Below are positions 14,459 through 54,453 of a stretch of 64,000 nucleotides of DNA, piece by piece. Both the position numbers and the translations under genes were made by a program. Every line of letters starts with the position of its first letter. The first letter of the stretch is position 1. The stretch comes from a virus, in the IMG/VR virus record IMGVR_UViG_3300020420_000873, positions 1 through 64,000 of that record; one strand, written 5' to 3'. The notes below the pieces were generated by a model, which ran no database searches, was not told the DNA's origin, and saw nothing but the letters and a program-made list of their open reading frames with translations.

Positions 14459-14734
14459 CTACCCAACCGGTTCAAGTTTGCCATTTTTATCAGTAAACCA
14501 AGTATAACCTGCAATCTTTGCCTGCTTATCATAGCCTTTTAAGTTATAAGCAAAAAGAAGTTCTGGTTGATGTGTATTCCTAATCAATCCATATCTTGAC
14601 TGCCTATTACCCTCAAGTATATAACTGGCCTGTTTAGTTGTTGGATCTTCAACAAGCTCTACCTTAAATTTGTGTTTACCTATCTGCACTTCTGTGCTTT
14701 TCAGCAAATCACCGTGTTTTTCAACATCACTCAT
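14459..14734 (-). CDS. Hypothetical phage protein
   Basis: A 91-residue protein (MSDVEKHGDLLKSTEVQIGK), probably a small beta-rich fold. No family is recognised. It is the first gene of the minus-strand small-gene run and has its own sigma70-like promoter and an ATGAGG ribosome site. Confidence 0.6.
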   Translation of the reverse strand: MSDVEKHGDLLKSTEVQIGKHKFKVELVEDPTTKQASYILEGNRQSRYGLIRNTHQPELLFAYNLKGYDKQAKIAGYTWFTDKNGKLEPVG

Positions 14735-14772
14735 AATATTTTGTACCTCATTTATTAATTATGTATTTCTAT

Positions 14773-14800
14773 AATATAACACATTATAGATATCTGTCAA
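14773..14800 (-). promoter_or_regulatory. Sigma70-like promoter of small-gene run
   Basis: TTGACA (14795-14800), 16 bp spacer, TATATT (14773-14778). The TTGACAGAT extension is shared with the promoters of the VWA and MoxR genes. Confidence 0.6.
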
Positions 14801-27096: not shown

Positions 27097-27151
27097 TTTA
27101 TAAGTATACAGCAAAATTCCAATTAATTCAATATAAAATACGTACTTTATA

Positions 27152-33624: not shown

Positions 33625-35487
33625 TTAAAATTTCATTTTCCAGCCAATAGTAATATTTCTACCACCTTGGTTATAACCATCTGGACGCTCATAATGATCA
33701 TCTGTTATGTTTTTTACATTTAAAACAATTTCAGAATCCTGTGTTAAATAGTAACCTGCTGTAAGATCTCCAGTAGTTCTTTCTTTAACTGTAATTGTTG
33801 ACCAATTGCCAGAATCAATATCTCTATGATCACCATAGTACAATATGCTAGGGCTAATATAGTAGTTGTCTTTAGCATAAGTTATACCAGATCTGATAAT
33901 TGTATGAGGTCTACGTTTTAACCAAGTACCCGATGAATCTTCAGCTGATGATAATGCAATATTGTTAACAAAACTAAAGTTACCTACATAATAATTAAAG
34001 TCAATGTCGGCACCTTTCATAGTAGATACACCATTGCTATCATTACTATAAGTTGAATTAGAATATGTAATCATATCTTCTACATCTGTTGAGTAAAGAG
34101 CTATGTCAAACATGTGTGACTTACCTTTGTTATTGTATCCTATTTCTCTACTTACTGACGTTTCTGGTTTAAGATTTGGATTACCTGTATAACCATAGTT
34201 GTCTGCTCCATACATTTCATATAGTGTTGGTGATTTATAACCAGTTGATTGACTTATACGAAATCCATTGTATGAAGTACCAATTGAATATGTCGACTGA
34301 CCATTTGCAATCGAGTGTTCGTCATATCTTACACCACCTGAAATGATAAAGTTGTTTTCAAATGAGTAATCAAAACTATGATAAGTTCCTATTACAGATG
34401 CTGACTTGTCAACCGTTGAATTATAACTGCCTGTGTTGTTAAAGTCTACATCAAATCCTGTTGCATCTACACCTGTTTTTGTTGACAACTTATCTGAACT
34501 TGTTATCCAATCAAGTGATCCATGTGTAGCAACAGAATCGTAACTATCTATTTCAGTTCCGTTGACATATTCTCTATCCCACATTGTATGATCAACAACT
34601 GTTTTTATTTTTCCATACTTTACATCAGTTGATGTTTGCATTTGTCCAAAATAAAATTTAGTTTCATTTGTGTAATCTAAATCATCTGCACCTGAGGCAT
34701 CAATATCTGCGTTGGTTGTATTTGTTACTCCTGTAAATTTTATTTGAGTATCATCAAGAGTTACAATATGTCCAAAGTTGAACCCTAACACGTCATAGCC
34801 ATCTGGTTCAGTACCTTTTGGATAGACTGATATTCCATCTGATCCTTCTGCATATATACCAAAATTAAAATAATCTTTTCCATATGTGTAAGACATTGTA
34901 TTAGTATCATGCGAACCATGTGATAATGATATCTCATTTCTTTTGTAATCAGAAGTTTGAATATCAATTACTCCACCAACTGCATTAGGTCCATAGTTAG
35001 TACTCATTGGTCCTGTGTATAGATGTAATCCATCTGCAAAGTGTATGTTAATATTATTTAAATCTGTAGCACCATTGGTTGTTGAGTAATCAGTTATTGC
35101 TGATCCATTAATTGTTACAAGTGTGTGATTTGAATTGGTTCCTCTTGTAAACAAAGATGTTTGTTGTCCAGCTGGACCTGATCTAACTGCATTAAAACTT
35201 GGTGCATCTTCTAATGCTTCTGATAATATACTTGATCCTTCTTTCTTTTCGTCATCTAACCAAATAAAAGTATCTGTATAAATTTGGTCTGCTTTCTGTG
35301 ATGATGTCATTGTATGAAAAACTGGAATATCAATCACTAGTGCATCACACACGATTGTTTCATCTTTCATTTCTTCCCAGTAACATAAACGTTCATCTGC
35401 CTGTGCAGGCTTTATTAAAAATGCTACAAGTAGGATGGCCAGTACGATCACACCTCTACCTATATGCCTTTGATTTTCACTGTTCAT
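33625..35487 (-). CDS. TonB-dependent outer-membrane receptor, BtuB-like size
   Basis: A 620-residue protein. A signal peptide (hydrophobic 13-27, cut after AQA at 30) is followed by a TonB-box-like DALVIDI (48-54, compare DTLVVTA of BtuB), a plug domain with LFTRGTNSNHTLVTING and YGPNAVGGVIDI (to about 176), then an aromatic beta-barrel ending in a terminal Phe (GWKMKF). Receptors of this length are typically for cobalamin rather than siderophores. It would sit in the host outer membrane and import a scarce nutrient. It overlaps the permease gene upstream by 11 bases, so the two form a unit. A whole TonB receptor in a phage is unusual. Confidence 0.85.
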   Translation of the reverse strand: MNSENQRHIGRGVIVLAILLVAFLIKPAQADERLCYWEEMKDETIVCDALVIDIPVFHTMTSSQKADQIYTDTFIWLDDEKKEGSSILSEALEDAPSFNAVRSGPAGQQTSLFTRGTNSNHTLVTINGSAITDYSTTNGATDLNNINIHFADGLHLYTGPMSTNYGPNAVGGVIDIQTSDYKRNEISLSHGSHDTNTMSYTYGKDYFNFGIYAEGSDGISVYPKGTEPDGYDVLGFNFGHIVTLDDTQIKFTGVTNTTNADIDASGADDLDYTNETKFYFGQMQTSTDVKYGKIKTVVDHTMWDREYVNGTEIDSYDSVATHGSLDWITSSDKLSTKTGVDATGFDVDFNNTGSYNSTVDKSASVIGTYHSFDYSFENNFIISGGVRYDEHSIANGQSTYSIGTSYNGFRISQSTGYKSPTLYEMYGADNYGYTGNPNLKPETSVSREIGYNNKGKSHMFDIALYSTDVEDMITYSNSTYSNDSNGVSTMKGADIDFNYYVGNFSFVNNIALSSAEDSSGTWLKRRPHTIIRSGITYAKDNYYISPSILYYGDHRDIDSGNWSTITVKERTTGDLTAGYYLTQDSEIVLNVKNITDDHYERPDGYNQGGRNITIGWKMKF

Positions 35488-36016
35488 ATATGCCTTTCCT
35501 ATTAACTATCATTAGATAGATATTGTTGAAAGGTCGAGATAACGCCACTGTTAAAGATACCATCAAAGCAGTATACACCACTGTACCTAAAATTGTATTT
35601 TGGAAAAATGGTATTGCCATTGTATAACACATTATCAATCCTTCTAATGTATTAGGATAGTAATCCCACATAATCCAAACAGCAAAATTTGTTACTATGT
35701 AAAATAACACAGATGATAATAGCGTCATTATCGCTAATGATACATATTTTCTTCCAAACTGCATAGCCCATTTACTAATCACAGTTGACATTGCTATTGC
35801 TCCGTACACCCATAACATATAGGAATGAAATCCAATAAACACATCTCCAATGAACATTGCCATTAATGGTACTGCCATTGCCATCCAACGATCATTAATG
35901 ATGTATGGTGCAAATATAGCCGCGGCCAATATGGGTGTAAAATTTGGAGGATGTGGTATGAGTCTACCTAAGGCAAGAATGCCAGAAATATATAAAAACG
36001 ATAATATAATCTTCAT
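35477..36016 (-). CDS. ECF S-component-like membrane protein (DUF6580-like)
   Basis: A 179-residue protein with five or six hydrophobic spans. The N-terminal segment LGRLIPHPPNFTPILAAAIFAPYI is characteristic of small substrate-binding membrane proteins akin to ECF transporter S components (DUF6580-type). Such proteins bind vitamins or cofactors at the inner membrane. Paired with an overlapping BtuB-like receptor gene it suggests vitamin uptake, B12 being the best guess. No ECF ATPase or T component is in the window, so host partners or solitary function would be needed. Confidence 0.65.
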   Translation of the reverse strand: MKIILSFLYISGILALGRLIPHPPNFTPILAAAIFAPYIINDRWMAMAVPLMAMFIGDVFIGFHSYMLWVYGAIAMSTVISKWAMQFGRKYVSLAIMTLLSSVLFYIVTNFAVWIMWDYYPNTLEGLIMCYTMAIPFFQNTILGTVVYTALMVSLTVALSRPFNNIYLMIVNRKGIYEQ

Positions 36017-38890: not shown

Positions 38891-38998
38891 AGATAGGAAA
38901 ACAAAAAGACTCAATCCAGTAAGTAAGATAATTTTTACCGTTCCTTTAAGACCAAAAGCCCAAAGAAACAATACAAGAATAAGTAAGAACCAAAACAT
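38870..38998 (-). CDS. Mini membrane protein coupled to VWA gene
   Basis: A 42-residue, almost wholly hydrophobic protein (starts MFWFLLILVLFLWAFG) with two short spans separated by LKGTVK. Its ATG overlaps the stop of the upstream VWA-metallopeptidase gene (TAATG), a strong sign of coupling and of a real gene. It converges on the DUF6356-like gene. No family is recognised. Confidence 0.55.
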   Translation of the reverse strand: MFWFLLILVLFLWAFGLKGTVKIILLTGLSLFVFLSLLVAFG

Positions 38999-40227
38999 TA
39001 GATGTTCTCATAATGAGTTGTTACACCAAATGGTGCTTCAAGTTCTTTATCATGATTTGAATGTATTACCCAAAGTGTATCACAATAATTTTCATCACCC
39101 CAAGAACCCCAAGGATAACCATCTGTGAACACAATCAACTTCTTAGGTTGTACACCATTTTCTTTCATCCAAGTCCAATTGGCTTCAAATTCTGTACCAC
39201 CAAAGCCACCTGGTTGATAATCTGTGATATCTTTGTCTGGCGTAAATATTTCCGGATTGTGTACTTCTGTATCAAAACTCCATACATGAACTTTGTAATC
39301 TTGAAACGAATCCATAATACCTTTCACTTCACCTAAGAATATTTTTAGTTGTTTGTCACTGATTGATCCTGACGTATCAATTGCAACACACACATCAACT
39401 GCTGGTTCAGGTTGTAGTCCAGGCAATATAGCATCTACTGACCAACCTTTTCTTGAAGGTCTCATAAATGAATAGTCTGATTTTACAACTGACGTTATAT
39501 GTTGATCTAACAACGAACGCCAATCCATTTTAGGCTCAGTCATATTTTTAATCAAACGTTCAACACCTTTAGGTATGTTACCTGCGCCTGCCGCCTGTGC
39601 CGCCTGTAGTACTGCATTTTTAATTTCGTCTTTTAACTTATCTTTTTCTGCTTTAGACATAGCAGGTTGTTTGCCATCTTTGCCTTTTCCGTCTTTGCCA
39701 TTACCATCTTTATCTTTGTCACCTGGTTTTCCTTCACCATCTAAATGCATATCAAGAGTTAATTTAATTTCAACTTGATTTTTCTTAAGTTCAGAATAAA
39801 TTTCATCTGAGTTTTTATCATAATATTTAGGATCATGTAAACCTTCTTTAGGCATTTTACCCAATCCTTCACGTACCAATTGACCATTAATAACATAGTC
39901 AGTTGCCATGTTCCAAATCTGTGGCTGTCTACCTTCTCTACGTTCCATGTGATCATATACGCAATGCATCACTTCATGACCAATAAGAAAGTCTAGCTCA
40001 TCTGATGTCAAAGGAGTAATAAATTCTCTGTTGTAAAATAAATGCATACCATCGGTTGCCGCGGTTGGACACCAATCGTCAGCATTTTTAAGTTTTAATC
40101 TTGTTGCAAGATTGCCAAAAAACGGATGTTTCAATAAAAGACGTACTCTACTTTGTACAATTCTTTCACGAATTTCGTGATCTTCTTGTATGTTTATCTT
40201 TTTCTTTAGTGCAGTTTTCTTTGCCAT
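38998..40227 (-). CDS. VWA-domain putative metallopeptidase (DUF2201-like)
   Basis: A 409-residue protein. The N-terminal half has a zinc-protease-like HEVMH (84-88) within an alpha-helix; residues 165-190 are a Gly/Lys/Asp linker; the C-terminal von Willebrand A domain has the MIDAS motif DTSGS (284-288) and later TDGYPWG. Such proteins usually work with a MoxR-type AAA ATPase, here encoded at 43347, and the two genes share an identical 33 bp promoter. Bacterial MoxR/VWA pairs act as chaperones that mature metalloenzymes or complexes. The role in phages is unknown. Confidence 0.83.
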   Translation of the reverse strand: MAKKTALKKKINIQEDHEIRERIVQSRVRLLLKHPFFGNLATRLKLKNADDWCPTAATDGMHLFYNREFITPLTSDELDFLIGHEVMHCVYDHMERREGRQPQIWNMATDYVINGQLVREGLGKMPKEGLHDPKYYDKNSDEIYSELKKNQVEIKLTLDMHLDGEGKPGDKDKDGNGKDGKGKDGKQPAMSKAEKDKLKDEIKNAVLQAAQAAGAGNIPKGVERLIKNMTEPKMDWRSLLDQHITSVVKSDYSFMRPSRKGWSVDAILPGLQPEPAVDVCVAIDTSGSISDKQLKIFLGEVKGIMDSFQDYKVHVWSFDTEVHNPEIFTPDKDITDYQPGGFGGTEFEANWTWMKENGVQPKKLIVFTDGYPWGSWGDENYCDTLWVIHSNHDKELEAPFGVTTHYENI

Positions 40228-40250: not shown

Positions 40251-40283
40251 TATATAATAGCATCATATAGGTATCTGTCAACC
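40251..40283 (-). promoter_or_regulatory. Promoter identical to that of the MoxR gene
   Basis: TTGACA (40276-40281), 16 bp spacer, TATTAT (40254-40259). All 33 bases are repeated exactly at 44470-44502. Confidence 0.8.
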
Positions 40284-40323
40284 TCTTTTTGGCCAGAAAA
40301 AAGTCAATAATATCAACAATTTA

Positions 40324-40641
40324 TTACACGCCACCATAGTAATAACTGATTAATCCTGATAAAAATATAAATGTAGCCACACTATTAATGAAGATTAATG
40401 CTCTATCGTGCCATAAAAAGCCAACAATTCCCCAACCTATCACTCCAGTTAAGTGAAACCATAGATTAAATGGCTGTACATCAGCTGACGTGAATGCCAT
40501 TCCTATTAAAATAATAAAACTTGATGCCCATTTGATGTACCAAGACAGATCGTATTTAGGTGTCACTTTTTTAAATACCCTTGATGAATTTAACTTTTTT
40601 ATTTTATCGTTAAGTTTTTCGTTAATTGGTTCTATTGTCAT
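40324..40641 (-). CDS. Small membrane protein, three spans
   Basis: A 105-residue protein with a soluble basic N terminus and three hydrophobic spans (WASSFIILIGMAFT, WFHLTGVIGWGIVGFL, ALIFINSVATFIFLSGLI). No confident family. It ends a minus-strand run of seven overlapping small genes that includes a radical SAM gene. Confidence 0.6.
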   Translation of the reverse strand: MTIEPINEKLNDKIKKLNSSRVFKKVTPKYDLSWYIKWASSFIILIGMAFTSADVQPFNLWFHLTGVIGWGIVGFLWHDRALIFINSVATFIFLSGLISYYYGGV

Positions 40642-40822
40642 ACTCTTTTTTTGTTATCATTTCTAATTCTACTGCATCTACTTTAGCATATTTGTATAAA
40701 AAGTCAACCGATTCCATTAAGCTGGCATAAGTTTTCTCCCACCAATAAACTGATGAAGACAACTCTCCTCTTGTCACGGTTACTTTGTAATACACGTCAC
40801 TCACGATGCTATTTTCTCCCAT
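40622..40822 (-). CDS. Hypothetical phage protein
   Basis: A 66-residue aromatic-rich protein (MGENSIVSDVYYKVTVTRGE), predicted beta-rich N terminus and helical C terminus. Overlaps both neighbours by about 20 bases. Function unknown. Confidence 0.55.
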   Translation of the reverse strand: MGENSIVSDVYYKVTVTRGELSSSVYWWEKTYASLMESVDFLYKYAKVDAVELEMITKKEYDNRTN

Positions 40823-41031
40823 GCTAAAAATCCTTTAACAATATCTTTGTCTTTAGCTTTTTTAAATGCAAAATAACTTCCGCCTGCTATGTAATACCAA
40901 CCTGTGGCATTTCTCCTAACTGTTACTGCAAGTTCTTTCTCTACTTGTTTATCAAGTATAGGAAGATCAATCACATAGTATTCACCTTTGTAATTCATGA
41001 ATTCTTTTCTTGTTAGTTTCCTAGACTTCAT
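40801..41031 (-). CDS. Hypothetical phage protein
   Basis: A 76-residue basic protein (MKSRKLTRKEFMNYKGEYYV), predicted beta-rich. Overlaps both neighbours. No family is recognised. Confidence 0.55.
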   Translation of the reverse strand: MKSRKLTRKEFMNYKGEYYVIDLPILDKQVEKELAVTVRRNATGWYYIAGGSYFAFKKAKDKDIVKGFLAWEKIAS

Positions 41032-41401
41032 TGATTGCTTTCTCTATTTTTTTATAATAGTCATCAAACGTTTCTGCTTCTTCTCTGGTCAGGTATGCTA
41101 CAGAACCAAAACAAGGATAGCCATTTACACCACTTGGAAACCGATCTTTCATATTTGCATAAAACATACAAGGCTTGTCTTGATGCATTCCTTGACCCAT
41201 ATCAGGTGACATCAGCATCAATGGCATGAACACACTTGGTATATCGTTGGGATCATGTATTTGAAAACTAGTAAACACTTCTCCACGATATACTTGTTGT
41301 GCCAACTCTTTTAAAAACTCCTTTGACTTTGAAGGACGTTTCTTACGACTTTTTTTATTAACTTTATATTCTTTTATATCTTCTTTTTTTATTTCAAGCA
41401 T
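41021..41401 (-). CDS. Hypothetical phage protein
   Basis: A protein of 126 residues from the ATG chosen here (MLEIKKEDIKEYKVNKKSRK); a GTG start eight codons upstream would overlap the radical SAM gene. A Lys/Arg-rich N terminus precedes a compact domain with conserved-looking FMPLMLMSPDMG and FPSGVNGYPCFG. Function unknown. Confidence 0.6.
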   Translation of the reverse strand: MLEIKKEDIKEYKVNKKSRKKRPSKSKEFLKELAQQVYRGEVFTSFQIHDPNDIPSVFMPLMLMSPDMGQGMHQDKPCMFYANMKDRFPSGVNGYPCFGSVAYLTREEAETFDDYYKKIEKAINEV

Positions 41402-42392
41402 ATTCTTTCTTATTTTTGTAGACACCTTTTAAGGCACAACTTTTGATACATCTAGGTAAATGATTATCGTGAGATGCATACCATCTTTCTTTTAAAGATG
41501 TATAAAAACTATTTTGTAATATTTCACTAATAGTATTTTTTGTAAGATCATTAAAATCTTTATCATCAGACATTACCACGTCGTTATATGATTTTTTAGA
41601 TTGATCATACAAATAGCAACAAGGCCACATTGTCATATCAGCACCAATGTAAACTTCTGGTTCATTATAGTGTTGACATGTGATTGTTTTTACAATGTCA
41701 TTTATTGTCTTTACACTTTTTTCTTTTATTACTTTCTGTAACTTTGTCAAGTCATTGTGTGGTAATTTCTTTGACGCAGTTAATTTTACTTCGGTATCCA
41801 TTTTTTTAGTTTTATGAACTTTTTTTGCAAGAACATTACGACCACTTGTTCTTTTAATAAATCTAAAACCAAGTTCGTTTGATAGTTGTTTTGCCTTTTC
41901 GTATTCATGTTCATTGTGAGCAAATGGAATAAACACCCATGCACCTTTTCCTCCTGCTTGAGAAAATGCTTTCATGTTCCTTAAAAGAATATCCCATTTA
42001 ACATTTACTCGATAAATGTGATTAGTTTCTTCAAATCCGTCTACACTGAAGTCAACTTTTAAATTTTTAACTTTGGCAAGTTTGCTCCACCACTCTGGTG
42101 TATTGTAACCACCGTTGGTACTAATGATTACATTACCACCTTTATTGCCCAACCATTCACATATTTCTAAACATTGTGAATGGACTATTGGATCTCCTAA
42201 TACTCCACATAATTTAAATTCTTTACCTTTTACTGATTCTTCAGTTTTAAAAAGATTCATAATATTTTCTAATGATATTTCTGAATTCCCTCTCAATGGC
42301 ATACCCATTTCTGTTCTGGCACATAAAGGACATTGTGCGTTACAATTGGCACTGATTTCTAATTCATATTTTTTTATGTCAGCTTCAATCAT
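41394..42392 (-). CDS. Radical SAM/SPASM protein
   Basis: A 332-residue protein. CNAQCPLC is the SAM-cluster motif, GVLGDPIVH and ISTNGG follow, and the C terminus has CQHYNEPEVYIGADMTMWPCC and CIKSC, matching a SPASM-like domain. It is a close paralogue of the protein at 12085. The ATG chosen overlaps the zinc-finger gene's stop and has an AAGGA ribosome site. It lies among early-type small genes, away from the late operons, so its paralogue group may serve more than one process. Confidence 0.82.
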   Translation of the reverse strand: MIEADIKKYELEISANCNAQCPLCARTEMGMPLRGNSEISLENIMNLFKTEESVKGKEFKLCGVLGDPIVHSQCLEICEWLGNKGGNVIISTNGGYNTPEWWSKLAKVKNLKVDFSVDGFEETNHIYRVNVKWDILLRNMKAFSQAGGKGAWVFIPFAHNEHEYEKAKQLSNELGFRFIKRTSGRNVLAKKVHKTKKMDTEVKLTASKKLPHNDLTKLQKVIKEKSVKTINDIVKTITCQHYNEPEVYIGADMTMWPCCYLYDQSKKSYNDVVMSDDKDFNDLTKNTISEILQNSFYTSLKERWYASHDNHLPRCIKSCALKGVYKNKKEYA

Positions 42393-42669
42393 CTTTGTCC
42401 TTGTCATATCCATCACTCATTGATTCATTAATATCATTTAAGTATCCAGCGAAACAATTTGGTGGATTAGTGTACTCAGGTGAAAGAGTAGGATCATATA
42501 CAAATTTTGTGTAACAATAAGTGCAATGTTTGTGATCATCATCTCCCATAGTATAATAAGTGTGTGGATGATCGTTAGGTGGTTCACAGCCAATGCAAAT
42601 AAAACCTTTGGTACCAATCTTTATTTCAGATACTCCAATGTCATTTTTATAAAAATATTTTCCTGCCAT
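42385..42669 (-). CDS. CHCC-type zinc-finger protein
   Basis: A 94-residue protein with C28, H34/H36 and C49-x2-C52 arranged as in the zf-CHCC domain (ICIGC, DHPHTYYTM, HCTYCYTKFVYDP), known from mitochondrial complex I subunits and small bacterial proteins. The acidic C terminus (SDGYDKDKDD) is unassigned. It overlaps the radical SAM gene and may be its partner or a metal carrier; this is inference. Confidence 0.7.
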   Translation of the reverse strand: MAGKYFYKNDIGVSEIKIGTKGFICIGCEPPNDHPHTYYTMGDDDHKHCTYCYTKFVYDPTLSPEYTNPPNCFAGYLNDINESMSDGYDKDKDD

Positions 42670-42851
42670 TAATGAACTGTTTTGCTACCTTTAAGTAAAC
42701 CCATCTCACTCATATTTTCATATAGTTTATTTTTTGTAGATTTCCAAAAATTAAGAGACCAATCATCGCAAGAATTTTCAATAGCGATATCACAATTTTT
42801 TAATAATCTATTATACATTCTTTGTAGATCTTCTTTTGTTGCTATTATCAT
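42669..42851 (-). CDS. Small helical hypothetical protein
   Basis: A 60-residue, mainly helical protein (MIIATKEDLQRMYNRLLKNC). Single-base overlaps with both neighbours indicate an operon. Function unknown. Confidence 0.58.
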   Translation of the reverse strand: MIIATKEDLQRMYNRLLKNCDIAIENSCDDWSLNFWKSTKNKLYENMSEMGLLKGSKTVH

Positions 42852-43264
42852 TATTTTTTCTCCTGGTTTGATTCTATTCCATATTTTGCAAGTAGCATAC
42901 TAAAATACTTTTCTGTTTTTCTTATAGCCTGTGCAAGTTTAGGACTGATGTCTGTACTGAACAATTCAGTGTATTCCCATATACCTTTTTCATTGTGAGG
43001 TTTAAAATAACCATTTACTGCTTGGTCATGTAGCTCTTGTGTATATGATTGAATCTTATACAATTCGTTATTGTGTATGTAATTAAAAATACATCCATTG
43101 CATTCGACATATTTTTCGTACCATCTTGATTCAGCAAGATTTGGTTTTTCTAGTTTAGTTATTTCTCTATCTTCATTAAAATATAAAAAATGAGATACGT
43201 TATCCCACTTTGTGTCAGGATGTTTTAAACTTTTTAATTTAAAAATGAATATTTTGTTTTGCAT
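42851..43264 (-). CDS. Hypothetical phage protein
   Basis: A 137-residue protein (MQNKIFIFKLKSLKHPDTKW) with two central cysteines (ECNGC). No family is recognised. First gene of the small-gene run, just downstream of a large hairpin. Confidence 0.58.
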   Translation of the reverse strand: MQNKIFIFKLKSLKHPDTKWDNVSHFLYFNEDREITKLEKPNLAESRWYEKYVECNGCIFNYIHNNELYKIQSYTQELHDQAVNGYFKPHNEKGIWEYTELFSTDISPKLAQAIRKTEKYFSMLLAKYGIESNQEKK

Positions 43265-43286
43265 ACTATTACTTATCTTATAGGGC

Positions 43287-43336
43287 GGGGAACTGATCTA
43301 CGTTTTAAGAGCAGAGAGAGGCAGATCTAGTTCCCC
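43287..43336. other. Large intergenic hairpin
   Basis: GGGGAACT (43287-43294) pairs with AGTTCCCC (43329-43336), and GATCT with AGATC, giving about 13 pairs with one bulge and a loop rich in AG/CT repeats. It lacks a T tract on either strand. It may be an RNA processing or stability element between the MoxR gene and the small-gene run. Confidence 0.55.
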
Positions 43337-43346
43337 TAACGGCATT

Positions 43347-44438
43347 CTAAACGTCTACGATTAGTTTGCCGTATCTCTTATAAAACTCCTTAAAGCTCTT
43401 AAGCTCTTTAGGGGAAAACGGTAGTTGATGATTTTTTAGTGCTATTCTGGCACCTAATACTACCATTTCAGTTTCAAAATTGTCCATCATGTATTGCAAG
43501 AAACAATCTGCCATTGAATGCCAAGGAGCCATTTTCTTATTCTTCTGCGCCTTTTCACATTCGTCTTTAAGTTCATAACACAATGAAGTAATCAACGAGT
43601 ACATAGCACTCACTTCATTTGTGTCAAGTTTCTTAACCTTACCACTCAAAATATCACTTGGGTTTGGTAATTTACCAGCAACCTCTCTATGTGCATTAAA
43701 TTTAACTGCAAGGCCTTCGCCTACTGCACCTGTGATAATATCTGTAAGTTGTGAACCTTGTAAACCACTTGACTCTAACATGTCACTTACAAATGACCAA
43801 GATCTTGGAGTAGCAAATGCTCTAGAAGAACTTCTTGGATCAAAGTCATACAAGTCATTTTTAGCAAATGTTAAGTAACCAACTACATCTGGATGGATGC
43901 CATTGTTAGTTGCCCAATTTTGCCAGTCTTCAAAGTTAACTGCCATTTCAATATGCAACATTCTGTTAGCAAGTGGTGAAGGCATTCTATAAGTAACACC
44001 TCTATCACTTTCTCTGTTACCAGCCGCCACAATTGACACACCAGCTGGCAATTTATAAGTACCAATCCTTCTATTAAGAATTAGCTGATAAGCCGCCGCC
44101 TGTACACTCTGTGGTGCCGCATTAATTTCATCCAAGAATAAGATGTCCGTTGCTTTCGGATCACTTGGAAGATCAACTGGTGGTGCCCAATCCATTTTGT
44201 TTTCTTTAGAATTAAAGTATGGAATACCACGCAAGTCTGTTGGTTCTAAAAGAAGCAATCTCAAATCAATGACATTTCTTTTGCTGTCTTTACCAATTTG
44301 TTCAATAATTTCTGATTTACCTATTCCTGGAGGACCCCATATCATCACAGGACGTTGTGCGTTAATACAAGCAATAATCTCAGCTTTTACGTCTGCTGGT
44401 CTTACTGTTCTGCTGTCTGTTGTAGTTGTTTTTACCAT
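43347..44438 (-). CDS. MoxR-family AAA ATPase
   Basis: A 363-residue AAA+ protein. Walker A is GPPGIGKSE (35-43), Walker B ILFLDEIN (99-106), and sensor motifs are in SIVAAGNRESDRG. MoxR ATPases act as chaperones with VWA-domain partners; here the partner at 38998 has the same promoter. The pair resembles MoxR/VWA sets that I recall in T4-type marine phages. It may remodel or activate a metal-containing or multi-subunit target. Confidence 0.86.
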   Translation of the reverse strand: MVKTTTTDSRTVRPADVKAEIIACINAQRPVMIWGPPGIGKSEIIEQIGKDSKRNVIDLRLLLLEPTDLRGIPYFNSKENKMDWAPPVDLPSDPKATDILFLDEINAAPQSVQAAAYQLILNRRIGTYKLPAGVSIVAAGNRESDRGVTYRMPSPLANRMLHIEMAVNFEDWQNWATNNGIHPDVVGYLTFAKNDLYDFDPRSSSRAFATPRSWSFVSDMLESSGLQGSQLTDIITGAVGEGLAVKFNAHREVAGKLPNPSDILSGKVKKLDTNEVSAMYSLITSLCYELKDECEKAQKNKKMAPWHSMADCFLQYMMDNFETEMVVLGARIALKNHQLPFSPKELKSFKEFYKRYGKLIVDV

Positions 44439-44469
44439 TTTATCTCTCTCTGTTTAAATGTTTATTAAG

Positions 44470-44502
44470 TATATAATAGCATCATATAGGTATCTGTCAA
44501 CC
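44470..44502 (-). promoter_or_regulatory. Promoter identical to that of the VWA gene
   Basis: TTGACA (44495-44500), 16 bp spacer, TATTAT (44473-44478). Exact copy of 40251-40283. Confidence 0.8.
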
Positions 44503-44568
44503 AGAAAAATGCATTTTGTTGGTTAAAAAAAGCCAATAAAATCAATGGTTTAAAAGAAAGTTAAAAAA

Positions 44569-47260: not shown

Positions 47261-50200
47261 TTAGCCTCCCATAACCAAGTGTACCCATGTATGAGTAACC
47301 GTACCAAATGATCTTGATGCACCTGCATCACCTTCTGCCGCTTTGATCTTCATTGAACTAAAAGATCCAAATGCAGTTGGTGATCCTGATGATCCTCCAC
47401 CTGGTATTTCTCTCAACGTAATATCTTTGTTTAATGGTGTAACATTATATTTGTTTGCTGAATAGTTGTAACCATATAATGTAACACTTCCTGGTGGATA
47501 ATTATAACCTGTAAAGTTAATTGTTATGTCACCGCCTGCCGCTGAATCAATTGATACACTTGATATACCTGATGTTTTGTCTGTTATGCTTGATAATTGA
47601 CCATTTGTTGCATAGTTAATTTTAAATCTTTGGATATCAGTTCCACCACCACCTGATATAGTTGTAAACGATAACTGTCCTGAACCATTTGTTACAAGTG
47701 CTTGACCGTTTGTACCATCTGTGATTGCCGCCGGCGATGCCGTAGCAAATACTGGTAAGTGTCCTGAAGCATCTGGTAAGTTGATTGTGTTGTCTGCTGT
47801 TGGATCAACTGCTTGAAGTTTTGTTTCATTTGTATCTGCTGTTGAACCTTCAAAAGCAATACTTGTGATACTGTTGATGTTTGGATCTAAACTTAATGAT
47901 AATGCAAATGACGCCGCGTCAACATTAATCTGTCCTGATGTACCTAATACTTGTAATGTTTCTGAAGCAAGTGTAACACTACCTGTACCTGTGTTACCTG
48001 CTGTGTTAAGTGTGCCACCACCTGTTGCATCTGTTTTCCATTTGAATGAAGTTGATGAATGATCGTAGTATAATACCTTGCCATCATCTGATGCCGCAAC
48101 TGCGTCTACATTTGATAATGATGTTAAACTTTGTCCTGTTATGTTTGTTAGGTATCCCGCTGATGCATGGTTACCCCAACCATATGCTGTATCCCAATTT
48201 GATGAGTTTGCAAGTTGACTGTTGTTTGCTAGTTTAATCCAGTTACCGCCATGTGCAAAATATCCTGCTCCAGTGCCGTGTACGTGAGCAAACATACCAT
48301 GGTATGTTGATGCATTTGGTAAGTCACCTTCTGCACTGTAAACATTTGAGTATAAAATTTTTCCTGTTGTAGTAATGTTGTTACTACCCATGTTAAGGTT
48401 GGTACCTTGTACGGCACTAATTGCTCTTGCATTTGTAAAGTATTCATTTGATCCTTCAGCAACATCATCTGTTGTTAATGAATCCCAACTTAACTGTCCA
48501 GCACCATTTGTTTTTAAATATTGATTTGCTGAACCATCTGCTTGTGGCCATTTTTGACCATCAAGTATGATATCACCTGTGTTGTGTGGAGTAATTGTGA
48601 TGTTACCATTTGATGCTGTAGTTGTTATACCTAAGTTACCTGCCGCTGATAAGTTTGGTGATGAACCTGTTGTTGTTACTGATCCAACTGTTAACTCATC
48701 AGTTGTTTTGTTGTATGTAAATCCTGAGTCACCAGCAAATGAACCACCATCATTAAATTGAACTTGTGTATTTGATCCACCTGGTGTTCCGCCGCCACCT
48801 GACTGTGCCACCCAAGCATAGTCTGAGCCATTCCAACTTAACACATATCCTGATGTTGGATTTGATTGATTCAAGTGTGAATCAATTGCACCATTTAATC
48901 CTGCTGTTGTTTGATAACCAGCACTGCCATGATCACCCCAACCATATGCTGTATCCCATTGACCAACTTTTGTGTCAGTGATAACATTTGTACCCATGTC
49001 AATTGTGTTACCATTGGCATCTAATGTGCCGCCTAACTGTGGAGTAGTGTCTTCTACAACATTGTTGATTGATACTGCTTGTACTCTTGCGTCAGTGTAG
49101 TATAAATTAGTTGAACCTTCTGACAATGCATCTGTGTCTGCTGGAGAAGTATCATTGCCTGGTACCCAAGCACTACCGCTCCATTTTAAAACCTGTCCTG
49201 ATGATACACCTGATGTATTAACATCTGATAGTGCATTGATACTTGCCGCGGCAATACGTGCATCTGCTCTTGCATTTGTGAAGTATAAGTTTGTTACTTC
49301 TGGTATGTCTGCTGTATTAACTTGTCCGCCACCTGTACCAAAATCAATCATTGTGTCTGTGATTGAATCTGCCGCTGGTGTAAATGAAATATTAGTTATC
49401 TGTGAACCATCCACTGCTGGTATTTTTGCTGAACCATCTAATTGTAAAATTTTGTTTGCTGTTGTTCCAACATCAACGTTTAGTGTTTGTGTGTGGTCAC
49501 CTGCTGTTGTATCTTGTGTTCCTGTTAAACCTGTGCCTGCTGTGATGTTAACTCTTGTAATATCACCTGAGCCTGCCGCTGATGGAATAAACGCCGAACC
49601 ATCCCATGCCAACACTTGTCCTATTGCGACACCTGACGTGCTAACATCTGTTAATGCATCGATCGATGACGCACCAATACGTGCATCTGCTCTGGCATCT
49701 GCTCTTGCATTTGTAAAGTATAAGTTTGTTCCTTCTGCTAAATTTGTTGTTGATTTAGTTCCTAGTCTTGTATCGAAATCTGAATTGAAAGTTGAATAAA
49801 CTGTATCTGTATCATTTGCTGGTGCCCATGCACTGCCGTTCCATTTTAAAACCTGTCCTGATGTAGCACCTGTGTTAACATCAGATATATCAGTTAATGA
49901 TGCCGCACCAATACGTGCATCTGCTCTTGCATTTGTAAAGTATAGGTTTGATCCTTCTGATACATCACCTGTGTCTTTACTTGCTAATCTTGTATCAAAG
50001 TCTGTGTTATCAAATGCATCTGTGATTCCGTAACCAGCTATTGTAGTTGGCTTGCCTGTTAGTGAAGCAAATGATTGTGCCGGTACTGATGTCAAGTAAC
50101 CTGGATCTGCAACAAATTCTAATGCGTTAGAACCTGCGTTAACTTTTACGAATCTACTTGCCGCACCTGAGAAGTTTGCTGGTGTATCTGATAAACCTGT

Positions 50201-52147
50201 GAACGTTGCCGATCCACCTCCACCTGAAGCATCATCTGCCATTTCCCAGTTACCAGATGAACTGTTGTATTTTAGAATCTTGTCATTTGCTATACCTGTT
50301 GTGTCAACGTCTGTCAAAGCACCAATACTTGCCGCCGCTATTCTGGCATCTGCTCTCGCATTTGTGAAGTATAAGTTTGTTTGTTCTGGTATGTCTGCTG
50401 TTGATACTTGATCAGCACCTGTACCAAAATCAATCATTGTGTCTTTGATCGAATCTGCCGCAATTGATGTTAAGTATCCTGCCGCACCATGGTCTCCCCA
50501 ACCATATGCTGTATCCCAGTTTGCTTTGCCTAATGCGTTTACCCTAGCATTGACTCTTGCATCTGTATAATATAAGTTTGTGCCTTCTGCTAAATTTGTT
50601 GTTGATTTAGTTGCTAATCTATTATCAAAATCTGTATCTGTATAACCTGCGTTAGTTACCCAAGCATAATCTGAACCATTCCAACTTAATACATAACCTG
50701 CTGTTGGATTTGATTGATTTAAATGTGTGTCTACATCTGAATTTGTGTAACCAGCTGGCATGTTTGTAAGTGCCGAACCATCTACTGCTGGTAGTTTTGC
50801 TGAACCATCTAGCTGTACAATTTTACCTGCACTTGTTCCAACATCAACGTTTAGTGTTGCTGAACCTGATGTTGCACCGCCTGTTAAACCTGTGCCGGCA
50901 ACAACTGCTGTAATGTCTCCTGCACCTGTGCTTGATGGTGCCCAATATGAATTTGCATTATCCCATGCAAGTACTTGTCCATCTGTTGGAGCCGCTGTGT
51001 GTACGTTTGATAAAGCACTTAACTGTGCCGCACTAATACGTCCATCTGCTCTTGCATTTGTGAAATATAAATTTGTACCTTCTGGTAAGTTGGTTGTTGA
51101 TTTTGTTGCCAACCTATTATCAAATGTGGTATTGAAATCTGCTGTTGCTAGTTTTGTTGCAATTGAATTTGTTATTGTTGTTGAAAAGTTTGCATCATCA
51201 CCTAGCGCCGCCGCTAATTCGTTTAATGTATCTAATGCTCCTGGAGCCGAATCAACAAGTGCATCAATTTTTAATTGTGCTCTTGCATCTGCTCTAGCAT
51301 CTGTATAATATAAATTTGTTCCTTCAGCAACGTCTGTTGTATTTAAAACATCAAACTCAACTGCACTTTCACCTGAATTAACTCTTAAGTATTTTCCTGC
51401 GTCACCTGTGAAGTTTGCTGGAGTATCTGATAAGCCAACGAATGTTGCAGAACCACCTCCGCCTCCACCGCTGTTATCTGTACCAACTTCCCAATTTGTT
51501 GTTGATGAATTATATTTTAAAACTGATCCATTTACTGCACCTGAAGTATCTACATCACCAATATTTGCAATTGAATCAATTGCTCCTGCCACTGATGCTC
51601 TACCATAAAAATAATCTGCATAAATGTTTAACCATTTGTATGAGTTTGAACCTAATGAATATGTGCTGTCTGTATCTGGTAAAACGTTAGCATTATTTTT
51701 AACTGTGAACGAATCAATTTCTGCTTTTGAATAAACTGATAGATTTGATCTTGCTGTTGCTAATGATGTTACTGATGCTAAATTATCTGACTTTCTTAAA
51801 AAGTCTGATGCCGCAACACCACCTAATTTACCTGCATCAACATTTGCTGAAACTAGTTGAAAAGTTAAATCGTTTGTGTTTGCTGTTACACTAATACCAC
51901 TTGCCGCATTGGCTATTAATGATTTTAGCTGTAGGTTATCGCCTGATTTTGACGTAAATAAACCAGAACCTGTACCTAGATTTAATGCTGTTGTATCGTT
52001 TGATGCTGTGATTGTAATGTTATTAGCATCTGCTGTTAATGTTACATTTGTACCGCCTACAAGTGATTTAAACTGTAGATCATCACCTACTTTTTGTGCA
52101 AAAATCCCTTGCCCTGTACCTAAATTTGACGCCGTGTTATCAGACAT
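47261..52147 (-). CDS. Giant repetitive tail-fibre protein
   Basis: A 1628-residue protein with at least nine copies of a motif like EGTNLYFTNARADARI, several followed by a companion block with GQVLKWNGSAW. These repeats recur in phage fibre shafts. The N-terminal 60 residues contain two further short repeats (GTGSGLFTSKSGDNLQLKSL). The C terminus (SFGTVTHTWVHLVMGG) is unlike the shaft and probably forms the tip. It should trimerise and bind the host surface. A late promoter precedes it. The repeats could allow length changes by recombination. Confidence 0.88.
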   Translation of the reverse strand: MSDNTASNLGTGQGIFAQKVGDDLQFKSLVGGTNVTLTADANNITITASNDTTALNLGTGSGLFTSKSGDNLQLKSLIANAASGISVTANTNDLTFQLVSANVDAGKLGGVAASDFLRKSDNLASVTSLATARSNLSVYSKAEIDSFTVKNNANVLPDTDSTYSLGSNSYKWLNIYADYFYGRASVAGAIDSIANIGDVDTSGAVNGSVLKYNSSTTNWEVGTDNSGGGGGGSATFVGLSDTPANFTGDAGKYLRVNSGESAVEFDVLNTTDVAEGTNLYYTDARADARAQLKIDALVDSAPGALDTLNELAAALGDDANFSTTITNSIATKLATADFNTTFDNRLATKSTTNLPEGTNLYFTNARADGRISAAQLSALSNVHTAAPTDGQVLAWDNANSYWAPSSTGAGDITAVVAGTGLTGGATSGSATLNVDVGTSAGKIVQLDGSAKLPAVDGSALTNMPAGYTNSDVDTHLNQSNPTAGYVLSWNGSDYAWVTNAGYTDTDFDNRLATKSTTNLAEGTNLYYTDARVNARVNALGKANWDTAYGWGDHGAAGYLTSIAADSIKDTMIDFGTGADQVSTADIPEQTNLYFTNARADARIAAASIGALTDVDTTGIANDKILKYNSSSGNWEMADDASGGGGSATFTGLSDTPANFSGAASRFVKVNAGSNALEFVADPGYLTSVPAQSFASLTGKPTTIAGYGITDAFDNTDFDTRLASKDTGDVSEGSNLYFTNARADARIGAASLTDISDVNTGATSGQVLKWNGSAWAPANDTDTVYSTFNSDFDTRLGTKSTTNLAEGTNLYFTNARADARADARIGASSIDALTDVSTSGVAIGQVLAWDGSAFIPSAAGSGDITRVNITAGTGLTGTQDTTAGDHTQTLNVDVGTTANKILQLDGSAKIPAVDGSQITNISFTPAADSITDTMIDFGTGGGQVNTADIPEVTNLYFTNARADARIAAASINALSDVNTSGVSSGQVLKWSGSAWVPGNDTSPADTDALSEGSTNLYYTDARVQAVSINNVVEDTTPQLGGTLDANGNTIDMGTNVITDTKVGQWDTAYGWGDHGSAGYQTTAGLNGAIDSHLNQSNPTSGYVLSWNGSDYAWVAQSGGGGTPGGSNTQVQFNDGGSFAGDSGFTYNKTTDELTVGSVTTTGSSPNLSAAGNLGITTTASNGNITITPHNTGDIILDGQKWPQADGSANQYLKTNGAGQLSWDSLTTDDVAEGSNEYFTNARAISAVQGTNLNMGSNNITTTGKILYSNVYSAEGDLPNASTYHGMFAHVHGTGAGYFAHGGNWIKLANNSQLANSSNWDTAYGWGNHASAGYLTNITGQSLTSLSNVDAVAASDDGKVLYYDHSSTSFKWKTDATGGGTLNTAGNTGTGSVTLASETLQVLGTSGQINVDAASFALSLSLDPNINSITSIAFEGSTADTNETKLQAVDPTADNTINLPDASGHLPVFATASPAAITDGTNGQALVTNGSGQLSFTTISGGGGTDIQRFKINYATNGQLSSITDKTSGISSVSIDSAAGGDITINFTGYNYPPGSVTLYGYNYSANKYNVTPLNKDITLREIPGGGSSGSPTAFGSFSSMKIKAAEGDAGASRSFGTVTHTWVHLVMGG
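47600..51700 (-). repeat. Tandem coding repeats in the tail fibre
   Basis: Degenerate repeats of about 100-200 bases encoding NLYFTNARADARI-like units, with near-identical DNA cores. These are protein-coding repeats, not CRISPR. Confidence 0.75.
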
Positions 52148-52590: not shown

Positions 52591-52597
52591 TATTTAT
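52591..52597 (-). promoter_or_regulatory. Late promoter core ATAAATA
   Basis: GGATAAATAAG, eight bases before the ATG at 52582, and between two tail-region genes. Confidence 0.6.
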
Positions 52598-54453
52598 CCA
52601 AAGGTTATACCACTGTCCACAATAACACCACCTTCTATTGTTATCAAAGCTGATGCATCATTGACTGTTAGTGCGAATGATCTGTCTTCATATTCAAAGC
52701 TGTTTGTTGATCTAACAACAAAATTATATGTGCCACTTGCATTTGAATCAGGAGTACCAGATAATATTCCGCCACTGTTTAAAGACATCGTTCCAGGTAT
52801 ACTGCCAGACTGAATCGCGTGTGAAACAGAATGTAATTGTTCAGTTGCTCCATTTCTAAATGTAGCTGACAAATCAAAACTACCACTCACTTCTTCATTC
52901 AATGGTGCAAGAGAACCACTGGCAGTTGCCCAAGTAATTGTATAATCTTGATATGGTTGATACGCACGATTACGATTAGTTAATCCTGCTCCCCAGTCAG
53001 TGATTGCATTGTCAATGTCTCCATCACCTAGAAGAAATGTTTGTGCCGAAATTTGATTTGCTTTTGTTGTTACTGCACCATATGTTGATGCATCTCTATC
53101 AAAATAACATGCAACTTGACCTGCCACCTGTGGTGACGCCATAGATGTGCCTTGCAATTTTCTCAAATAATATCCAGTTGATCCTATTTGCACTGCTGAA
53201 CCAGAATTAATATATGCACTCTGTATTGCCACCCCTGGTGCCCATATTGTTAATGGTTCACCATAGTTTGAAAAAGATGCTTTTGCTAAACTAGAGTCGT
53301 GTGCTTGTACTGAAATGTCATGCCTTGTTGTTGTGCCTGATTCTATCCAAGCATTTGATGGAGATTGCCCATTGTTGGTTGCTTGAAAATACATTGTTCT
53401 GTTGAAACTTCCGCCCGGAGGTGCACCCGGTGTTCCTGATCTTGGTCCTGTGCCATGAACATTTGGATCATGTGCTGAAGCATCTTCTTTGTAAATTTTT
53501 TCACCACCACCATATCCCATGTCATTGCCACTATCATAAAAATACCAATAACCTGAATTCCATCCTGTTTCAGTAGAATCATAAACTCTTTCATTATCAT
53601 TACCAGCAGATGCAACAACCACTATACCTGCATTGTTCATATTTTTAATCAGTGTGTCGTATGAACTTGATCTTGTCATGTGATATTGACTGCTTGGAAT
53701 ATTACTTGGATCCCATGCCGCTGTAGTAATAAAGTATGATGGATGGTTTGGTGGATAATAAGTTGATGTTGCCCAACTCATGTTTACCACTGTTGGTCTA
53801 CCTGTGCCTTTTGAATTGTGCCACGATGTGATGTATCCCATCGAACTTGCTGAGTATCCATAACTTACACTACCTAAGTTTGTTGTGAAAACATAAATTT
53901 GTGCATCTCTGGCCCATCCTTGTGTTCTACCTGCCACTGTGCCTGCAACATGTGTGCCGTGTCCATTTGAATCTGTGTAAAAACTTGCTCCTTGTGTTCC
54001 ACCCCAATTTATTTGATTTATTCTCGATGATGAATTTGAAGCAAGATCATTAAACTCGGGGTGTCCTACAACAATACCTGTGTCCATTATAACACAATCA
54101 ACATTTGCCCCTGTGTTTGAATATGTAAAGTTTGTTGACAATGTAGTACTGCTCTGTGTCATTTGTGCAAGACCCCAATTATGATGTGATGCATTGTTTG
54201 TCCAGGAAGTGTTTGGATCAATTGTAGCTGTGCCTTGCTCTTTGAATCTTAATTTCTTTTCATACTCTTCACTGTTTGCTCCGGCCACTTTTTCTGATTT
54301 CAACCACTTGTCAAACACATCTCTTGATTCCATTTCTACCCAAATAATTTCAGGAATAGAAGCGTCAGTGATTGTGACTCCATCAGCTTCAAGTTCAATG
54401 ATTAGCTGTTCTTTTGTAATAATATCTAAGTTAGGTACAATTAGTGCTTTCAT
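52594..54453 (-). CDS. Subtilisin-like serine protease with C-terminal Ig-like domain
   Basis: A 619-residue S8 peptidase with the full catalytic triad: D124 (VIMDTG), H165 (GHGTHVAG) and S437 (GTSMASP), and oxyanion N285 (SAGN). Residues 1-90 are a possible propeptide. Residues 500-619 form a putative Ig-type domain (FDLSATF, GILSGTPDSNASGTYNFVVRS). It sits in the tail gene cluster, so it may be a virion enzyme that processes fibres or digests host surface protein. It has no signal peptide. Its leader holds a structured element also seen near 6061. Confidence 0.88.
   Translation of the reverse strand: MKALIVPNLDIITKEQLIIELEADGVTITDASIPEIIWVEMESRDVFDKWLKSEKVAGANSEEYEKKLRFKEQGTATIDPNTSWTNNASHHNWGLAQMTQSSTTLSTNFTYSNTGANVDCVIMDTGIVVGHPEFNDLASNSSSRINQINWGGTQGASFYTDSNGHGTHVAGTVAGRTQGWARDAQIYVFTTNLGSVSYGYSASSMGYITSWHNSKGTGRPTVVNMSWATSTYYPPNHPSYFITTAAWDPSNIPSSQYHMTRSSSYDTLIKNMNNAGIVVVASAGNDNERVYDSTETGWNSGYWYFYDSGNDMGYGGGEKIYKEDASAHDPNVHGTGPRSGTPGAPPGGSFNRTMYFQATNNGQSPSNAWIESGTTTRHDISVQAHDSSLAKASFSNYGEPLTIWAPGVAIQSAYINSGSAVQIGSTGYYLRKLQGTSMASPQVAGQVACYFDRDASTYGAVTTKANQISAQTFLLGDGDIDNAITDWGAGLTNRNRAYQPYQDYTITWATASGSLAPLNEEVSGSFDLSATFRNGATEQLHSVSHAIQSGSIPGTMSLNSGGILSGTPDSNASGTYNFVVRSTNSFEYEDRSFALTVNDASALITIEGGVIVDSGITFG

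What the first reader, a model, noticed from the sequence alone, without database searches (positions are those of the whole stretch)
40251..44502. Identical 33 bp promoters on the VWA-metallopeptidase and MoxR genes
Bases 40251-40283 and 44470-44502 are identical while surrounding sequence differs. Two proteins expected to act together keep exactly the same promoter 4 kb apart, suggesting stoichiometric co-expression or a recent duplication of the promoter cassette.
Basis: seen in the sequence. Interest (0 to 1): 0.6.

Follow-up and report, generated by a model that had tools for sequence, protein, structure and literature searches.

The report
Matched host-type promoters on split genes
Two phage genes that probably work as a pair each carry a copy of the phage's own strong promoter, so they would be switched on together and probably early in infection; the promoters are not unique to the pair, but similar environmental phages treat the pair the same way, which bears on a published idea that it acts in building the virus particle.

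Summary
The 33-bp repeat is real (40251-40283 and 44470-44502, minus strand, 0 mismatches; 0 of 100 shuffles match). It is a near-consensus sigma70-type promoter: TTGACA, 16 bp, TGC-TATTAT. It is not special to the pair. It belongs to a dispersed promoter family of this jumbo-phage group, with a weaker third copy at 14771-14800 and five close copies in a 328-kb relative. All three close relatives carry the family promoter on both moxR and vwa, so the arrangement is old. Exact identity holds in 2 of 4 genomes.

Across distinct IMG/VR loci, a host-type promoter precedes 76 of 91 moxR and 62 of 82 vwa genes, against 126 of 1101 other ORFs; the T4-type late motif precedes 0 of 91 and 2 of 82. Portal and capsid genes show 1 of 12 and 0 of 12 host-type promoters. 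This suggests pre-late expression of a pair that PMC7824862 proposed for virion assembly; N4 gp24/gp25 are likewise middle genes (PMC4193335). Eight cultured phages do not follow the strict pattern (2 of 16 regions), and no transcription data exist. A spacer element in two registers hints at a regulator, but the pattern-free symmetry test failed.

The parts
40251..40283 (-). Promoter copy upstream of the VWA-metallopeptidase gene; -35 TTGACA at 40276-40281, extended -10 TGC-TATTAT with the hexamer at 40254-40259
   Evidence: conserved at the same gene in G001, G002, G003
44470..44502 (-). Promoter copy upstream of the MoxR gene; -35 TTGACA at 44495-44500, -10 hexamer at 44473-44478
   Evidence: conserved at the same gene in G001, G002, G003 and G004
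14771..14800 (-). Third, diverged member of the promoter family (TTGACAGATATCTATAATGTGTTATATTAT)
   Evidence: the orthologous 90-92 aa gene has a family promoter in G001, G002 and G003 and in contig G005
40292..40322 (-). Upstream element TTGATATTATTGAC + T tract (possible weak terminator of the preceding gene), vwa copy
   Evidence: predicted fold only -1.0 kcal/mol
44520..44551 (-). Upstream element TTGATTTTATTGGC + T tract, moxR copy
   Evidence: predicted fold only -1.2 kcal/mol
43347..44438 (-). MoxR-type AAA+ ATPase, 363 aa (Walker A GPPGIGKS at 35, Walker B ILFLDE at 99)
   Evidence: PF07726; phrog_1297, 1.3e-101
38998..40227 (-). DUF2201 metallopeptidase + VWA protein, 409 aa (HEVMH at 84, DTSGS at 284)
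   Evidence: PF13203 1.9e-43, PF09967 9.6e-20; phrog_1314
14459..14734 (-). 91-aa ORF of unknown function served by the third family member
   Evidence: no Pfam match
40324..43264 (-). Genes that separate moxR from vwa: 137-aa ORF, zf-CHCC protein, radical SAM/SPASM protein, 134-aa ORF, DUF6552 protein

Best explanation
The two 33-bp sites are copies of one phage-wide, host-type promoter. The host's main RNA polymerase would read GG-TTGACA, a 16-bp spacer and the extended -10 TGC-TATTAT at both genes. This puts moxR and vwa, which are neighbours in most related phages but stand about 3.1 kb apart here, in the same pre-late expression class, each gene with its own promoter. The copies are held by selection over the life of this phage group; near-identity inside one genome probably also reflects occasional local sequence exchange. 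Shown: the repeat, the family, its conservation at both genes, and the contrast with late-type motifs at other genes. Inferred: that the sites start transcription, that they fire early, and that the two proteins act together.
For: Exact repeat with a perfect TTGACA and extended -10 close upstream of both starts. Family promoter at both genes in all 3 close relatives; 13 matches within 3 mismatches in 4 records, 2 to 5 each; at moxR of a further contig too. Gene order moxR then vwa on one strand in 149 of 149 loci that hold both, of 163 examined. Host-type promoter before moxR 76 of 91, vwa 62 of 82, other ORFs 126 of 1101; late-type motif 0 of 91, 2 of 82, 109 of 1101. After clustering moxR at 90% identity, cluster-averaged 27.8 of 36 and 28.0 of 34; false-positive rate on shuffled upstreams 0.7%. 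Portal 1 of 12 and capsid 0 of 12 host-type. A second lineage (G006) carries near-identical promoters of a different sequence at moxR and vwa, 5.9 kb apart.
Against: No transcription data. In 8 cultured phages the strict host-type criterion is met in 2 of 16 upstream regions (0 of 8 moxR), one of these probably part of a hairpin. A strong match of the two promoters inside one genome is found in only 6 of 21 distant pairs and 3 of 76 close pairs. MoxR-type ATPases may be virion-associated: the PA5oct ATPase carries an ESI-MS/MS note, and phAPEC6 lists an ATPase among virion proteins. That would fit a role in assembly, though it does not require late transcription. The loci are not independent.
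Confidence: 0.7

Rival explanations
1. A recent duplication or gene conversion copied the promoter from one gene to the other, with no functional meaning.
For: In the window the vwa core carries the moxR-type triplet (TAC) although vwa cores of the relatives do not. In G003 the two 137-bp upstream regions are 74% identical to each other, more than to any other copy (at most 69%). The core is identical within 2 of 4 genomes.
Against: Both genes carry the family promoter in all four genomes, so the arrangement is older than their split. For G000, G001 and G002 the moxR upstreams resemble each other (0.77-0.90) more than they resemble the vwa upstreams of the same genomes (0.60-0.61).
Confidence: 0.25
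2. The copies are operators as well as promoters: a phage or host regulator reads a spacer element AGRNNYCTAT that lies in one of two registers.
For: The motif (9 or 10 of 10 positions) occurs in 25 of 48 extended -10 promoters against 0.16 in spacer shuffles. In G003 16 of 26 and in G002 10 of 16 genome-wide occurrences of AYAGRNNYCTAT, counted over both strands so that perfect palindromes count twice, lie at such promoters. One gene, judged orthologous by eye, has the motif in different registers in G003 (131737) and G002 (72688).
Against: The motif was derived from the same data. A pattern-free symmetry test gave 92 of 200 shuffles at or above the observed value in G003, 11 of 200 in G002, 140 of 200 in G000 and 179 of 200 in G001. 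The column test for the class near the -35 box gave p 0.12; the other class gave 0.0004 but was chosen by the motif. No regulator was identified.
Confidence: 0.3
3. It is a mobile promoter-terminator cassette like the PeSLs of T4-type phages.
For: A T-tract element lies 34-46 bp upstream of the -35 box at moxR and vwa in all four genomes except at G001 vwa, and at moxR of G004. Some family members sit behind strong hairpins: G003 186010, -15.8; the G001 moxR site, -11.9 kcal/mol.
Against: The window's two copies fold weakly (-1.2 and -1.0 kcal/mol). Host-type promoters at moxR and vwa occur with unrelated flanks in many loci.
Confidence: 0.15

Closest known systems
Host-like (sigma70-type) early promoters of T4-like phages
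   Same: TTGACA / TATAAT-type promoters read by host polymerase, distinct from TATAAATA-type late promoters (general knowledge, recalled). Both classes are visible here. PMC4503421 mentions a host-like early promoter in S-PM2 (passage).
   Different: Here the spacer is partly conserved across a phage-wide family; timing not measured.
PeSL promoter/stem-loop cassettes of T4-type phages
   Same: Dispersed near-identical promoters, some behind stem-loops.
   Different: No strong stem-loop at the window's copies; mobility not shown. Known to me only through a passage of PMC4503421 and recall.
MoxR-vWA metallopeptidase pair of group 2.2 jumbo phages (PMC7824862)
   Same: Same two-gene pair with the N-terminal metallopeptidase domain on the vWA protein; passage read.
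   Different: That paper proposes a role in virion assembly and processing. The promoters here suggest pre-late expression, which fits such a role less directly.
N4 gp24/gp25 (N4-like core genes)
   Same: AAA ATPase plus vWFA protein; described as middle transcripts in N4 (passage of PMC4193335; table of PMC2784036).
   Different: N4 middle genes use a phage RNA polymerase (PMC2784036); here the promoter is of host type. Homology of the pairs was not tested here; the RaK2 record itself calls its ATPase similar to N4 Gp24.
RavA-ViaA of E. coli
   Same: MoxR ATPase with a vWA partner (abstracts).
   Different: Cellular; no sequence test against it was made here.

Membership tests
sigma70-type promoter | -35 TTGACA, 16-18 bp spacer, -10 close to TATAAT, upstream of a gene | tested here: met
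   TTGACA, 16 bp, TGC-TATTAT, the -10 ending 26 and 34 bp from the starts
sigma70-type promoter | Mapped transcription start | not testable with these tools
   No RNA data
T4-type late promoter | TATAAATA-like -10 upstream | tested here: not met
   No NATAAATA within 90 nt upstream of moxR or vwa in the window
PeSL cassette | Promoter plus stem-loop as one conserved unit | tested here: not met
   Weak folds for both window copies (-1.2, -1.0 kcal/mol); stronger only at some relatives' sites
PeSL cassette | Mediates gene shuffling | not tested
   Needs many close strains
Dispersed repressor operator (stoperator-like) | Recurring binding site with a cognate regulator | tested here: inconclusive
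   Recurring spacer motif, but the pattern-free symmetry test failed and no regulator is known
MoxR-vWA metallopeptidase pair | MoxR AAA+ ATPase with Walker motifs; partner with zincin HExxH and VWA MIDAS | tested here: met
   PF07726/PF00004; PF13203 + PF09967; GPPGIGKS, ILFLDE, HEVMH, DTSGS
MoxR-vWA metallopeptidase pair | Conserved gene linkage | tested here: met
   Same order and strand in 149 of 149 loci holding both genes, of 163 examined

The most novel reading that the evidence does not exclude
Each jumbo-phage lineage has its own promoter family with a lineage-specific spacer element read by a regulator, and moxR and vwa are constant members of that regulon even when the genes drift apart. 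In the window's group the element is AGRNNYCTAT in two registers. In a second group (G006-G008, G010, G011) it is a GANTC site next to the -10 whose common form fits the GcrA extended motif. If so, the MoxR-vWA-metallopeptidase machine is an early, regulated takeover or preparation factor and not a purely late assembly chaperone.
Probability: 0.25. Interest if true: 0.7.

Novelty: new member of a known kind. Interest (0 to 1): 0.45.

Why it matters
The MoxR-vWA-metallopeptidase pair is widespread in large phages (821 and 759 phage records match the two proteins) and its job is unknown. The promoters give a cheap, testable clue about when it is made: probably with or before replication, not with the capsid. 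That bears directly on the published proposal of a virion-assembly role and lines up with the middle-gene status of the N4 pair.

Tried and rejected
Chance repeat: rejected. A promoter private to the pair: rejected, the family is phage-wide. Recent duplication only: weakened. Palindromic operator: not established. The motif-based counts are striking, but a pattern-free dyad test gave 140, 179, 11, 92 and 18 of 200 shuffles at or above the observed value for G000, G001, G002, G003 and G008. The significant column test used sequences chosen by the motif. Host mimicry of GcrA-type promoters by the second lineage: a strict pattern found 6 stretches in the genome collection, none titled as Alphaproteobacteria (one title says only 'bacterium'), against 85 in viral contigs for a slightly stricter form. 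No GcrA match in 4 records; one sub-threshold methyltransferase match in 7 records. Tail sheath as a late control: only 2 of 16 records, both under the cut-off, not used. A third contig with one site of the other register (L361) has no close copy of the window's promoter. Literature: searches. for PeSL found none; the PeSL papers themselves were not looked up by id. The PA5oct paper, by the DOI I recalled, is not held. Of the 97 distinct loci, the 3 GenBank loci were dropped and looked at apart, with five more cultured phages. ORFs too near a locus edge were dropped, which is why it counts 91 and 82. In one search the capsid control used 12 of the 16 loci fetched; the other four were second pieces or a fragment. 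Starts of vwa were misplaced for some loci of the second lineage (L137, L127), so the count of 6 of 21 there is a lower bound.
Full report
Observation. The window holds two identical 33-bp sites, 40251-40283 and 44470-44502, both on the minus strand. Allowing 3 mismatches gives the same two sites and no other; the mean over 100 shuffles is 0.00. Read on the minus strand, each is GG-TTGACA, a 16-bp spacer and TGC-TATTAT: a near-consensus sigma70-type promoter with an extended -10, the repeat ending 23 bp before the vwa start and 31 bp before the moxR start. The flanks are not unrelated: both share AAACAGAGAGA before the start codon and a TTGA..TTATTGRC-T6 element 35-45 bp upstream of the -35 box.

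The genes. ORF 43347-44438 is a MoxR-type AAA+ ATPase and ORF 38998-40227 a DUF2201 metallopeptidase with a VWA domain. The window is part of a 70,981-base virus record. It also carries a DNA polymerase and several metabolic genes and 7 tRNA genes. The nearest annotated homologues are mostly in jumbo phages.

Not a private promoter. A third, diverged member lies at 14771-14800 before a 91-aa gene. Three close relatives exist in IMG/VR: G001 (69.6 kb), G002 (75.4 kb) and G003 (328 kb). In all three, moxR and vwa carry the family promoter, and so does the 91-aa gene. Within 3 mismatches, G000, G001, G002 and G003 hold 2, 3, 3 and 5 copies. A wider scan shows more members in dense clusters of small genes, at 127-139 kb in G003 and 69-75 kb in G002. 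Products of family members include a cell-wall hydrolase, a polysaccharide lyase and a glycine-zipper lipoprotein. A further contig, G004, has the promoter at a more distant moxR; by position its vwa side would lie beyond the contig end.

Age and copying. Since both genes carry the family promoter in all four genomes, the arrangement is older than their split. The 28-bp cores are identical within G000 and within G001. They differ by 5 positions in G002 and 3 in G003, by my count. Over 137 bp the moxR upstreams of G000, G001 and G002 resemble each other (0.77-0.90) more than the vwa upstreams of their own genomes (0.60-0.61). In G003 the two sites resemble each other most (0.74). I read this as long-term selection with occasional local exchange; four genomes cannot prove exchange.

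Linkage. In 149 of 163 loci both genes were found, always moxR then vwa on one strand, mostly 36-400 bp apart. The search favours linked genes, since loci reach 8 kb around one gene, and some loci are the same contig. Of 97 distinct upstream pairs, strong within-genome similarity (score 12 or more) occurs in 6 of 21 pairs over 1 kb apart and 3 of 76 nearer pairs (Fisher p 0.003, threshold chosen afterwards). An independent case is G006 (locus L099): moxR and vwa, 5.9 kb apart, share a promoter of different sequence.

Which class of promoter. In G003, TATAAATA, the T4 late core (recalled), is rare overall (29 against 84 expected), yet 19 of the 29 lie just upstream of ORFs; TTGACAGA and GGTTGACA are also enriched upstream of ORFs. 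In the window, late-like and TTGACW motifs fall mostly on different genes, and moxR and vwa have only the latter. Across the IMG/VR loci a host-type promoter precedes moxR in 76 of 91, vwa in 62 of 82 and other ORFs in 126 of 1101; the late-type motif precedes 0 of 91, 2 of 82 and 109 of 1101. When the genes are more than 500 bp apart, 23 of 24 vwa genes have a host-type promoter, against 39 of 58 when nearer. Clustering moxR at 90, 80 and 70% identity leaves 27.8 of 36, 14.4 of 19 and 8.1 of 11 clusters for moxR and 28.0 of 34, 15.0 of 19 and 8.7 of 11 for vwa; shuffled upstreams score 0.7%. As virion controls, 12 portal genes give 1 host-type and 4 late-type, and 12 capsid genes give 0 and 0; the capsid gene may sit inside an operon, so its zero for both says little about timing.

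Result against. In eight cultured phages (121Q, GAP32, RaK2, Atu_ph07, S-TIM5, PA5oct, Vibrio 2.275.O, Phosso) the strict criterion is met in 2 of 16 upstream regions, neither at moxR; a relaxed one is met at 4 of 8 moxR genes; the late motif is in 0 of 16. The rule is therefore shown for the environmental group around the window, not for all jumbo phages. The ATPase of PA5oct carries an ESI-MS/MS note and phAPEC6 lists an ATPase among virion proteins (passage; identity with MoxR not checked).

What is known. Iyer and colleagues (authors recalled; PMC7824862, passage) described the MoxR-vWA-metallopeptidase pair in group 2.2 jumbo phages and proposed a role in virion assembly and processing. 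The N4 gp24/gp25 pair is described as middle transcripts, near a second structural module in roseophage RPP1 (PMC4193335, passages; PMC2784036, table). A Bacillus phage paper notes a clustered MoxR pair (PMC2147016, passages). The promoter evidence here favours pre-late expression. That does not exclude a product later needed for assembly.

Spacer element. The family shares AGRNNYCTAT in two registers, 5 bp apart; 25 of 48 extended -10 promoters match at 9 or 10 of 10 positions, against 0.16 after spacer shuffling. A gene that I judge orthologous by eye has it in different registers in G003 and G002. This could be an operator. But a symmetry test that does not use the motif fails in three of the four genomes of this group and is borderline in G002, so I hold it as a hint.

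A side line. The second lineage (G008, 342.6 kb, and G006) has GANTC in the spacer of 16 of 22 and 3 of 3 extended -10 promoters, while GANTC is depleted genome-wide (615 against 1020; 118 against 198). The common form CGAATCG is, reversed, CGATTCG, which fits the GcrA extended motif YGAKTCG quoted in PMC7987155 (passage). The window's group shows no such signal: 0 of 4 promoters in G000, 174 GANTC against 152. The pattern is frequent in viral contigs (85 stretches) but nearly absent from bacterial genomes (6 stretches), so direct mimicry of a host promoter is not shown.

Verdict. The repeat is real, old and functional-looking: two members of a phage-wide host-type promoter family. Co-expression is the likely purpose. 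The part that specialists may find new is the general tie between the MoxR-vWA pair and pre-late promoters in this group.

Noticed in passing
G008 (contig of L137, 342,607 bases) and G006 (contig of L099); pattern in 85 IMG/VR stretches: Host-type promoters with a GANTC site next to the extended -10 (16 of 22 and 3 of 3) although GANTC is depleted genome-wide; the common form fits the GcrA motif YGAKTCG. Possible use of the host's methylation-dependent regulator.
   Followed up: partly
window 38998-40227 and homologues (GAP32, RaK2, Atu_ph07, S-TIM5, PA5oct): PHROG 1314 and several GenBank records call this protein an HNH endonuclease, but it is a DUF2201 metallopeptidase + VWA protein with HEVMH and DTSGS: a spreading misannotation.
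   Followed up: yes
window, upstream of e.g. 35477-36016, 47261-52147 and 52594-54453; G003: T4-type late promoter cores (NATAAATA) lie upstream of many genes and mostly not where TTGACW promoters lie.
   Followed up: partly
G008 and G006: AGATCT is absent (0 against 102 and 0 against 24 expected) and GATC strongly depleted: likely avoidance of a restriction system.
   Followed up: no
G003 127-139 kb; G002 69-75 kb: Dense clusters of small genes, several with their own family promoter; products include a polysaccharide lyase, a cell-wall hydrolase and an Api92-like protein.
   Followed up: partly
window 41394-42416 and 24633-27114: Three radical SAM proteins, one of them between moxR and vwa.
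   Followed up: no
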